A stretch of DNA of 64,000 nt. Source: Picochlorum sp. 'celeri'. Taxonomy: Eukaryota; Chlorophyta; Trebouxiophyceae. A program made the position numbers and the translations under genes. The stretch is from assembly GCA_010909725.1 (NCBI GenBank), contig JAACMV010000007.1, positions 1,550,001 through 1,614,000 on the forward strand, written 5' to 3'. Position 1 is the first letter of the stretch. Each line of letters begins with the position of its first letter. Below the pieces are notes generated by a model, which was given only the letters and a program-made list of their open reading frames with translations, had not been told where the DNA came from and did not search any database. This document shows, piece by piece, positions 54,379 to 56,624 of the stretch.

Positions 54379-54733
54379 CGACTTCCGCTCTGCCCACGTT
54401 CGCCCAGCTAAGAATCAAAAATACATTGCAGCCCTACCTCCTCCGACTATGCGACCTGGGAGGTCATACTCGAAAGGACTGACAGCGGGAGCACTCGTGA
54501 TATTTGTGGGACTCGTTGCGTCATATCCAGTGTTGCACGCAACCAAAGGGCCAAAGGTACTATTTAATTGAATAAAAACTTTCCATGGAGCATTAAGGAA
54601 ACGAATCTGTGTCTATATTGTTCAGATTAGCGAAGGAACGAAGGGTCTAAATCCAGATGCGCAAATTCGCGGGGCCTACACAAACACTGGATCCAAGGAC
54701 ATTGGGCCGGACACTAGGGTTTACAAAAGCTAA
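54356..54733 (+). CDS. Small single-pass membrane protein, conserved-looking
   Basis: Exons 54356-54556 and 54626-54733 (69-nt phase-0 intron AAG|GTACTA...GTTCAG|ATT) give 102 residues. A transmembrane helix GALVIFVGLVASYPVL is followed by a soluble tail with KISEGTKGLNPDAQIRGAY and NTGSKDIGPD. This tail recalls small plant membrane proteins that end in a similar GAYxNTGSKDxGPD block; their function is unknown to me. A start at the internal ATG (54450) would avoid overlap with the previous gene. The second exon is shared out of frame with the beginning of the CYP38-like gene. Confidence 0.62.
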
Positions 54734-55901
54734 TATAAATAAATTTTGCATCCATCGGGTCAGTCACCGCGATGATGCCGAGCAGTGTAGTAGTAGTCGT
54801 GGTAGAGAGGTGCCTCTGGAACGTTGCGTTATCGTGTCTCTCGCGGCCTCATTGATGGTATTTTCCAATCAGCCTGACGCGGATGCGTTGCTGTCTTCAC
54901 CCAAAACTCAGATTCCGAGGACAGCAGAGGCTGCTCTGAGAAGGTCCGTCCCTGCATTCAACAGCAAAGTTTATGAGCTGCAAAAGAACTTGGAGAACAT
55001 TGCATACCAATTACGGATACCCCAGCGCAAGCCTTGGAAGGATATGCAAGAGTATGCATCGAGGGCACGCGACCTTGCCCAAGACGAGAATGGAGTCCTA
55101 GAGGGAGTTCTTCCTGATGATATTGAGGAGGCGCTCGACTTGTTGTCCGGTATCCAAAGTGATCTGAACAAGCTCTTGAAATCAATAGACATAAAAGATT
55201 CTGACCGGACCTCCATAAGAGTCGCAAACGCTTTGGAGCGAGTTGGTAACCTTGAGCTTCTGCAAACACCTGGTCTCCCGTATTCAATTCCGGCAAAGTA
55301 CCAGAGTATGCCCAGGCTCACCGGTCGAGCCGTTGTGGAGTTGGTGATCCAAAAGCAGAAAGGGGCAGCTCCATTTTATGTGAATGAATCAGGTGATCGA
55401 GAGAGAGCGAAGATTCAAATAACTCTCGATGGATTTGGAGCACCGTTGTCTGCAGGCAGATTTGCTAAAAATGTTCTCAACCATATCTATGATGGGACAA
55501 CCCTCAGCGTCGATGATTCATCTGTGTTTGGAAATCCAAAAGAGCCACCTGATAGTGTTCAGATTCTACCACTTGAAATTTTGGCCAGAGGAGATTTGGA
55601 ACCAACCTATGGCAACAGTGGATTGGATGTTAATAGTGGCGAGATGCCCACATTGCCCTTGTCCATCTATGGATCTGTTTCCATGACAAGATTGGATGAT
55701 GGTAACTCATCTGGCAGCGACTTTTTCATCTTCAAGTATAATCGACAGCAATCTGGTTTATCAGGGCTTTCGTTTGATGAGGGTCGATTCGGCGTATTTG
55801 GGTATGTCACGTCCAATGCCAATGTCTTGCGACAAATTGACAATGGTGACATAATTGTCAGTGCCAAACTGATATCTGGAATCGACAAATTGAGGGAATA
55901 A
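54657..55901 (+). CDS. CYP38: Thylakoid-lumen cyclophilin CYP38/TLP40-like
   Basis: CYP38/TLP40 is a lumenal protein needed for photosystem II assembly. The 414-residue frame has a Ser/Arg-rich start, then a lumen-transfer hydrophobic helix (CVIVSLAASLMVFSN) ending in an AxA-type site (DADA before LLSS). A PsbQ-like helical bundle follows (about residues 95-205: LQKNLENIAYQLRI, LLSGIQSDLNKLLKSI), then the divergent cyclophilin barrel (IQITLDGFGAPLSAGRFAKN, GFVTSDGFV-like region altered to LSVDDSSVFGNP, and FGVFGYVTSNANVLRQI). Typical PPIase active-site residues are missing, as in plant CYP38. The first ATG overlaps the preceding gene's last exon by 77 nt in another frame; an upstream spliced start is possible. 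Confidence 0.85.
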   Translation: MRKFAGPTQTLDPRTLGRTLGFTKANINKFCIHRVSHRDDAEQCSSSRGREVPLERCVIVSLAASLMVFSNQPDADALLSSPKTQIPRTAEAALRRSVPAFNSKVYELQKNLENIAYQLRIPQRKPWKDMQEYASRARDLAQDENGVLEGVLPDDIEEALDLLSGIQSDLNKLLKSIDIKDSDRTSIRVANALERVGNLELLQTPGLPYSIPAKYQSMPRLTGRAVVELVIQKQKGAAPFYVNESGDRERAKIQITLDGFGAPLSAGRFAKNVLNHIYDGTTLSVDDSSVFGNPKEPPDSVQILPLEILARGDLEPTYGNSGLDVNSGEMPTLPLSIYGSVSMTRLDDGNSSGSDFFIFKYNRQQSGLSGLSFDEGRFGVFGYVTSNANVLRQIDNGDIIVSAKLISGIDKLRE

Positions 55902-55948
55902 ACGTTAAATTACTACTTCTGTTTGATGCAGTACATATATTTCTGTAA

Positions 55949-55981
55949 GGCCACTCTTAATTAATTCTGCTGTTCCCGTCA
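55949..55981 (+). repeat. Left terminal inverted repeat of the MITE
   Basis: This 33-bp sequence starts GGCCACTCTTAATTAA and is an exact reverse complement of 56569-56601. The flanking base A/T also pairs. Confidence 0.9.
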
Positions 55982-56568
55982 GGAGTGCTCTGACAAAAGT
56001 AGTCGGTAGGCGCGTGAAAAACAGAAATCTCCTCAAAAATATAAAGATGGATAGTGCGTCTTAGAAGCTCCTGTAAAGGGTTTTAATGTGTTTATTGATC
56101 AAATATGACATTTAATACTCTTGAGTAGCCATCATGCTCAAAATATCACCACTTGGCTCCGTTTCTGGTCCTTGAGAGCATGGTTGGTCAACCTCCACCA
56201 GGGAACCCTGTTCTGTACCTGCTGACTAAGTCTACTGTACAGCATATCTTCATATTTGAAGCTAGTTATCATTCAAAACACTCTTACTCTTCTTCCTCTC
56301 AGGCCCTCTGCATCCCTCAAGTGAATTTGACTGGAGCCAATCTTTGTAAAATTTCAAATTTTTGCCGACTGGATCGTCTGCTCTCAGGACTTGCCATGAC
56401 CAATCACGATGCATCATGATCGAGTTTCAGCCTAAAACCCCGTCAATCGACTCCTCTCGACGAGATCTATCGCATGATGGCATCTATTTGGTCCAATTCG
56501 TTACAGATTTCGAGCAACAGACGATTTATAAATCTCAGCCCCTCTCCTCCCAAAAGTGGTAGGCGATT

Positions 56569-56601
56569 TGACGGGAACAGCAGAATTAATTAAGAGTGGC
56601 C
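56569..56601 (-). repeat. Right terminal inverted repeat of the MITE
   Basis: This is an exact reverse complement of 55949-55981 and is followed directly by the TAA target duplication. Confidence 0.9.
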
Positions 56602-56624
56602 TAAGAAAAAAAACACAATTATCA

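What the first reader, a model, noticed from the sequence alone, without database searches (positions are those of the whole stretch)
55946..56604. Recent Tourist-like MITE in a convergent gap
Perfect 33-bp inverted repeats (55949-55981 and 56569-56601) with a flanking TAA direct duplication are seen directly. Apart from this element, the convergent gap between the CYP38-like and alpha-amylase genes would be only about 65 bp, like other convergent gaps here. Identical repeats suggest recent movement. MITEs of this family appear little described in compact green algae, and the element could serve as a query for its autonomous transposase.
Basis: partly seen in the sequence, partly recalled or inferred. 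Interest (0 to 1): 0.75.

Follow-up and report, generated by a model that had tools for sequence, protein, structure and literature searches.

The report
Young MITE beside algal gene ends
A 653-base piece of non-coding mobile DNA sits between two genes on one of the two chromosome copies of a tiny green alga, and the other copy still shows the untouched landing site, so the element probably moved recently; its helper enzyme was not found.

Summary
A 653-bp non-coding element (55949-56601) has perfect 33-bp terminal inverted repeats (TIRs) and a TAA target-site duplication (TSD). The genome is a two-haplotype assembly that matches the published Picochlorum celeri assembly in size and contig number. 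Homologous contig C24 carries the exact empty site with one TAA; the alleles differ by exactly 656 bp. Four more TIR-bounded copies of this subfamily were found, each on one haplotype only. Three have contiguous empty alleles (one exact, two with a SNP in the triplet); the fourth (C30) has a messy homologous site. TSDs are TAA x3, TTA and TGA; all 19 ends read abut TNA. This is a recently mobile, low-copy MITE of PIF/Harbinger (PHIS) style. Tourist/PIF-Harbinger membership stays unproven: two longer copies are MITEs with another repeat nested inside, a 5,052-bp relative showed no transposase domain, the only DDE_Tnp_4 gene is one locus without these TIRs, and no CACTA transposase hit lies within 10 kb of such TIRs. 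TIR identity is not a clock: TIRs are near-invariant while interiors differ by 6-8%. A lead: 7 of 9 left ends read follow T(A/G), and three insertions sit in TGTAA, the chlorophyte poly(A) signal, just after a stop codon; two others do not fit gene 3' ends.

The parts
55946..55948 (.). left target-site duplication TAA
   Evidence: empty allele on C24 has a single TAA
55949..56601 (+). 653-bp non-autonomous inverted-repeat element (MITE)
   Evidence: 656-bp length difference from the empty homologue
55949..55981 (+). left terminal inverted repeat, 33 bp
56569..56601 (-). right terminal inverted repeat, 33 bp, identical to the left
56602..56604 (.). right target-site duplication TAA
55944..55948 (+). 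TGTAA, candidate poly(A) signal of the upstream gene; its TAA is the target, so the motif is kept at the left junction after insertion
   Evidence: sequence; chlorophyte UGUAA signal: passages of PMC1868727; no RNA evidence here
56072..56076 (+). TGTAA inside the element, + strand (another at 56345-56349)
   Evidence: element positions 124 and 397
56501..56505 (-). TGTAA inside the element on the minus strand; possible substitute signal for the alpha-amylase gene (inference)
   Evidence: element position 553, TTACA on +
54657..55901 (+). CYP37/CYP38-like peptidyl-prolyl isomerase gene; 44 bases lie between its stop codon and the left TSD
   Evidence: ORF; Pfam PF21329 and PF00160
56625..57533 (-). 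3' part of an alpha-amylase gene; 20 bases lie between the right TSD and its stop codon
   Evidence: ORF; Pfam PF07821 and PF00128

Best explanation
It is a non-autonomous cut-and-paste DNA transposon (MITE) that a transposase acting in trans inserted into a TNA target between two convergent genes, duplicating TAA, on one of two homologous chromosomes. The best superfamily guess is PIF/Harbinger-related (PHIS), about 0.65 likely on its own. Shown: element, TSD, empty allele, sister copies, presence on one haplotype only. Inferred: cut-and-paste movement, the kind of transposase, and that the transposase comes from an element absent from this assembly or not recognised here.
For: Empty site on C24 with one TAA and a length difference of exactly 656 bp. 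Five TIR-bounded copies of this subfamily. Contiguous empty alleles for the C16, C1 and C6 copies on C10, C21 and C28. The C16 and C1 copies differ by 2 of 653 bases, less than the 0.8% SNP heterozygosity published for P. celeri (PMC7225527, part 1 of 2 of the text seen). TNA at 19 of the 19 element ends read, from 12 insertion sites. TIRs begin GG and are 33 bp long, fitting the PHIS description (PMC4482050, passages).
Against: No TIR-flanked transposase found: PF13359 gives 4 exon hits at one locus on two haplotypes, without these TIRs. TSD TGA on C30 is outside strict TWA. C30's homologous site on C4 is not clean. On C10 and C28 the single target triplet carries a SNP (CAA for TAA, TTG for TTA). 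The older 644-bp copy on C22/C2 has TTA on one side and TAA on the other, not a duplicated triplet. Copy number is low for a MITE (recalled expectation).
Confidence: 0.9

Rival explanations
1. Non-autonomous derivative of a CACTA (EnSpm) transposon, which also makes 3-bp duplications and looks recently active in this genome.
For: 18 PF02992 hits, 11 of them with the same score of 51.7 bits and 10 of those 11 in 1109-aa open frames. The one copy read has 3-bp TSD TCT and TIRs CCCTACTGAGG / CCCCACTAAGG, loosely the 'C-CACT' shape also seen in GGCCACTC.
Against: None of the 18 PF02992 hits lies within 10 kb of any of the 40 family TIR pattern hits; the nearest pair is about 15 kb apart on C7 and on C24 (searches compared). 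In the copy read the nearest stretch to the family TIR has 14 mismatches of 33. Its TSD is TCT, whereas 19 of 19 ends read in this family are TNA. Ends of the other PF02992 copies were not read.
Confidence: 0.15
2. The single-copy HARBI1-like gene (C5/C20) is the transposase that moves the MITE.
For: It is the only PF13359 locus found in the assembly, with a readable three-exon frame by my own splice reading, and 2 of 2 database relatives are Picochlorum proteins at 91% and 80% identity.
Against: No TIRs of this family around it. Both alleles read GNPHFPL where the BPE23 protein reads GDSAFPL, so the apparent second catalytic Asp is Asn (the catalytic assignment is recalled, not tested). The Picre1 protein also has N.
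Confidence: 0.1
3. The empty allele is a precise excision product rather than the unoccupied ancestral site.
For: A single TAA fits either history; precise excision is known for PIF-type elements (recalled).
Against: Four of five loci would all have to have lost one allele precisely, while the older relatives with GGCCGCTC ends are seen on both haplotypes.
Confidence: 0.1
4. Assembly or phasing artefact.
For: Only an assembly was available; no reads.
Against: Element flanked by duplicated triplets at five unrelated loci, with interiors differing by up to 6-8%.
Confidence: 0.02

Closest known systems
Tourist / PIF-Harbinger MITEs (PHIS superfamily)
   Same: 3-bp TSD of TWA type in 4 of 5 TIR-bounded copies, TIR starts with G, TIR under 60 bp, no coding capacity
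   Different: TSD is TNA overall (TGA at C30); no partner transposase with these TIRs found, Myb-like protein not searched; low copy number; the TIR sequence was not compared with a TE library (none on hand)
NuwaII (PHIS superfamily; PMC4482050, passages)
   Same: TNA TSD and TIRs beginning GG
   Different: NuwaII target is described as C|TNA|G; here the flanks are G|TAA|G, G|TAA|T, G|TAA|C, A|TTA|G and G|TGA|A, 0 of 5 fitting; no transposase to place it
EnSpm/CACTA non-autonomous elements
   Same: 3-bp TSD; CACTA copies with intact frames in the same genome
   Different: different TIR and a TSD that is not TNA in the one copy read; no family TIR near the transposase hits

Membership tests
MITE (non-autonomous TIR element) | terminal inverted repeats with flanking target-site duplication | tested here: met
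   5 of 5 TIR-bounded copies of the subfamily
MITE (non-autonomous TIR element) | no transposase coded | tested here: met
   653 bp. In the longer C6 and C30 copies 3 of the 34 ORFs of at least 60 aa listed were scanned and had no Pfam hit; the six-frame PF13359 and PF02992 searches of the genome gave no hit there
MITE (non-autonomous TIR element) | multiple dispersed copies with empty sites | tested here: met
   5 TIR-bounded copies, 4 of 5 with contiguous empty alleles, 2 of those exact at the TSD; copy number is low
PIF/Harbinger (Tourist) | TSD TWA | tested here: inconclusive
   TAA, TAA, TAA, TTA fit; TGA at C30 does not; two one-ended copies of the subfamily abut TGA or TCA
PIF/Harbinger (Tourist) | TIR first base usually A or G, mostly under 60 bp | tested here: met
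   GGCC..., 33 bp; criterion from passages of PMC4482050
PIF/Harbinger (Tourist) | autonomous partner with DDE_Tnp_4 transposase sharing the TIRs | tested here: not met
   one PF13359 locus, no family TIR hit on its contigs; this assembly only, so absence elsewhere is not shown
PIF/Harbinger (Tourist) | second Myb/SANT-like protein | not tested
   not searched
EnSpm/CACTA | TIRs shared with a PF02992 transposase element | tested here: not met
   0 of 18 PF02992 hits within 10 kb of a family TIR hit; ends read for one copy only
NuwaII | C|TNA|G target | tested here: not met
   0 of 5 TIR-bounded copies

The most novel reading that the evidence does not exclude
This element lineage favours gene 3' ends by choosing T(A/G)TNA targets, notably the chlorophyte poly(A) signal TGTAA. 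Its TAA duplication re-creates the signal on insertion, and the element may supply spare TGTAA signals on both strands, which would let it enter very short convergent gaps of a compact genome with little harm.
Probability: 0.2. Interest if true: 0.6.

Novelty: new member of a known kind. Interest (0 to 1): 0.38.

Why it matters
A full-text search for papers holding both 'Picochlorum' and 'MITE' found 0. The one paper with MITE, Chlorella and Harbinger is on a haptophyte (listing), and neither of 2 listed is on green algae by title; one search listed 20 of 106 papers and I read none of them, so an earlier description is not excluded. A haplotype-phased alga with insertions on one homologue only makes allele-specific effects of an insertion on 3' ends directly measurable, in a species grown for biomass.

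Tried and rejected
Longer copies as autonomous elements: rejected. The C6 (3,056 bp) and C30 (3,597 bp) copies are MITEs interrupted by a separate repeat R at points 8 bp apart, so apparently two independent nestings. The 5,052-bp element on C10/C16 has TTA duplications and family TIRs but no Pfam domain above its cut-off in the 10 of 16 listed ORFs that were scanned. The TIR at C7:50393 looks like a lone end: no left TIR in the 3.9 kb read before it, which holds a trypsin/tectonin-like ORF. Other ends listed (C7:12161, C10:671254, C3, C4, C6:486335, C10:662371 and partners) were not read.

TIR in viral contigs: 0 hits. Rfam: 0 hits in the window. HARBI1-like protein against solved structures: 0 hits.

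The first form of the target test counted 7 of 8 left ends because the partial C21 copy had been left out; the full count of ends read is 7 of 9.

Full report
Observation. The inverted repeats, the TAA duplication and the coordinates are as described and are far from chance (2 matches in the window, 0 in 100 shuffles; folding z -6.2 against 20 shuffles). The element is 653 bp (55949-56601). With 44 bases between, it follows the stop codon of a CYP37/CYP38-like isomerase gene (PF21329, PF00160), and 20 bases lie between its right TSD and the stop codon of a convergent alpha-amylase gene (PF07821, PF00128).

Genome. G000 holds 27,412,692 bases in 30 contigs. The contigs examined fall into homologous pairs. 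The published phased Picochlorum celeri assembly is 27.43 Mbp in two sets of 15 scaffolds with 0.8% SNP heterozygosity (PMC7225527, part 1 of 2 of the text seen). Both database relatives of a gene of this genome are Picochlorum proteins (2 hits). I infer that this is P. celeri; the tool does not name it.

Empty site. The homologue C24 matches the left flank through TAA and the right flank from TAA, with a 4-base overlap (TAA plus a shared G) and nothing else between. The alignment breaks at the same place in two fetched stretches, with flanks 99.3-99.7% identical. The distance between fixed points on either side is 730 on C7 and 74 on C24, a difference of 656 = 653 + 3. The insertion is therefore heterozygous in this assembly.

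Other copies. A query with the left end gave 13 matches (the tool calls such counts lower bounds). TIR-bounded copies of the same subfamily: C7 (window), C16:187256-187908 and C1:332237-332889 (653 bp each, TAA), C6:282971-286026 (TTA), C30:886692-890288 (TGA). Joined flanks of the four others matched the homologue contiguously for C16 (C10, 97%), C1 (C21, 98%) and C6 (C28, 95%); for C30 the match on C4 is 86% and gapped. Base by base, C21 has the exact single TAA, C10 has CAA, C28 has TTG, and C4 differs by several indels at the site, so it is not a clean empty site. With the window, 4 of 5 have contiguous empty alleles, 2 of them exact at the TSD. A partial copy on C21 is identical to the C1 copy over 459 bases; it lies about 270 bases from the empty C1 site, inside a duplicated flank. 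Right-end fragments of the subfamily also occur on both C2 and C22.

Age. C16 and C1 differ at 2 of 653 bases. C7 and C6 are 98.8% identical over 569 bases and 96.8% over the first 93. Between C7 and the C16/C1 group identity is about 94%; over the last 559 bases C30 is 92.0% to C7, 94.8% to C16 and 94.5% to C1. The TIRs of the five copies are identical except one base in the left TIR of C6. TIR identity is therefore no clock; heterozygosity and the 2-base pair are better evidence. The TIR pattern with up to 2 mismatches gave 40 hits, the reversed control 0. Hits reading GGCCGCTC occur at matching places on both haplotypes (C1/C21, C2/C22, C7/C24, C10/C16), including a 644-bp copy on C22:1282558-1283201 and C2:1308347-1308990 and a 5,052-bp element on C10:675993-681044 and C16:676925-681976; one more distant hit, C4:806430, has no listed partner. 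The 644-bp copy has TTA and TAA at its two ends, not a duplicated triplet; the 5,052-bp one has TTA at both.

Longer copies. The extra DNA in C6 and C30 is a separate repeat R (2.4 and 2.9 kb). A search with the whole C6 copy gave 91 pieces, MITE parts included; pieces within R lie on C1, C5, C7, C10, C13, C15, C21, C27, C29 and C30, partly in head-to-tail arrays near contig ends. R enters A-runs and sits at two MITE positions 8 bp apart in the two copies. Three ORFs of the long copies, of 34 listed, were scanned and have no Pfam hit, and neither transposase search gave a hit there.

Transposase. PF13359 finds four exon hits, two at each of two allelic places; the DNA around it has two copies only. 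No family TIR is near (best 13 of 33 mismatches; no TIR hit on C5 or C20). Its apparent second catalytic residue reads N in both alleles and in the Picre1 protein but D in BPE23; the catalytic assignment is recalled. PF02992 finds 18 hits, 11 of them of equal score. One copy was read: ORF of 1,107 aa with Transposase_21, TSD TCT, TIR CCCTACTGAGG/CCCCACTAAGG. Neither transposase set lies within 10 kb of a family TIR hit (searches compared). The partner transposase is not identified.

Target. All 19 ends read, from 12 insertion sites, abut TNA. On the left side 7 of 9 ends are preceded by T(A/G), against 13.2% of TNA sites in the window (nominal P 2e-5); on the right side 3 of 10 (P 0.14). For TG alone it is 5 of 9 left (P 1e-4) and 2 of 10 right (P 0.13). 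In an earlier form, 4 of the 5 TIR-bounded sites have TG before or CA after the triplet against 13.6% of non-coding TNA sites (P 0.0015). These rules were chosen after seeing the data, copies are related, and the window is the only background, so this is a lead. The three TAA copies all read TGTAA at the left junction, and the TAA starts 9 (C16), 17 (C1) and 45 (C7) bases past the end of an upstream stop codon. The genes are a conserved protein (9 homologues), an LSM-domain protein and the CYP37/38-like gene. At C16 the gap to a convergent Tcp11-domain gene would be 18 bases without the element. Against a 3'-end rule: the C6 site lies between the starts, not the ends, of two mechanical ORFs, and at C30 the nearest ORF of 60 aa or more is 315 bases away, with a tRNA-Phe gene 27 bases beyond the other end. 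UGUAA is the reported chlorophyte near-upstream poly(A) element (PMC1868727, passages). In this window TGTAA occurs within 120 bases after 10 of 33 mechanical ORFs of 200 aa or more, before 2 of 33, and in 7.0% of random 120-mers. Selection against harmful insertions in a compact genome could give the same picture without any targeting.

Verdict. An ordinary kind of element, well documented here as recently mobile, with an unproven superfamily and one testable, uncertain idea about poly(A) sites.

Noticed in passing
L014:1561-3960 (C6), also within C30:886692-890288, plus C1, C5, C7, C10, C13, C15, C21, C27, C29: Repeat R (about 2.4-2.9 kb, ends CATTCCCGCGATGC...GCATCGC, inserts in A-runs, short asymmetric inverted repeat) is dispersed and forms head-to-tail arrays near contig ends. 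It resembles non-autonomous Helentron/Helitron2 elements (recalled, not tested); the genome has 8 Helitron_like_N hits.
   Followed up: partly
C18:895164-900959 (L079:865-6660) and 12 further right-end matches in the genome: CACTA-type transposon with an intact 1,107-aa Transposase_21 ORF; right ends 98-100% identical. The transposase hits on C2, C3, C21 and C24 have no equal hit on the inferred partner contig, while the C10 copy has a right-end partner on C16, suggesting recent activity.
   Followed up: partly
L064:1995-3423 (C5:777994-779422) and the C20 allele: HARBI1-like DDE_Tnp_4 gene with no family TIRs, shared by Picochlorum species; the position of the apparent second catalytic Asp reads Asn in both alleles and in the Picre1 protein, Asp in BPE23.
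   Followed up: partly
C21:816550-817405 (L018): MITE fragment identical to the C1 copy over 459 bp, about 270 bases from the empty C1 site on the homologue, between duplicated flanks; may be a local hop or a repair product.
   Followed up: partly
L015:4820-4893: tRNA-Phe gene beside the C30 copy.
   Followed up: no
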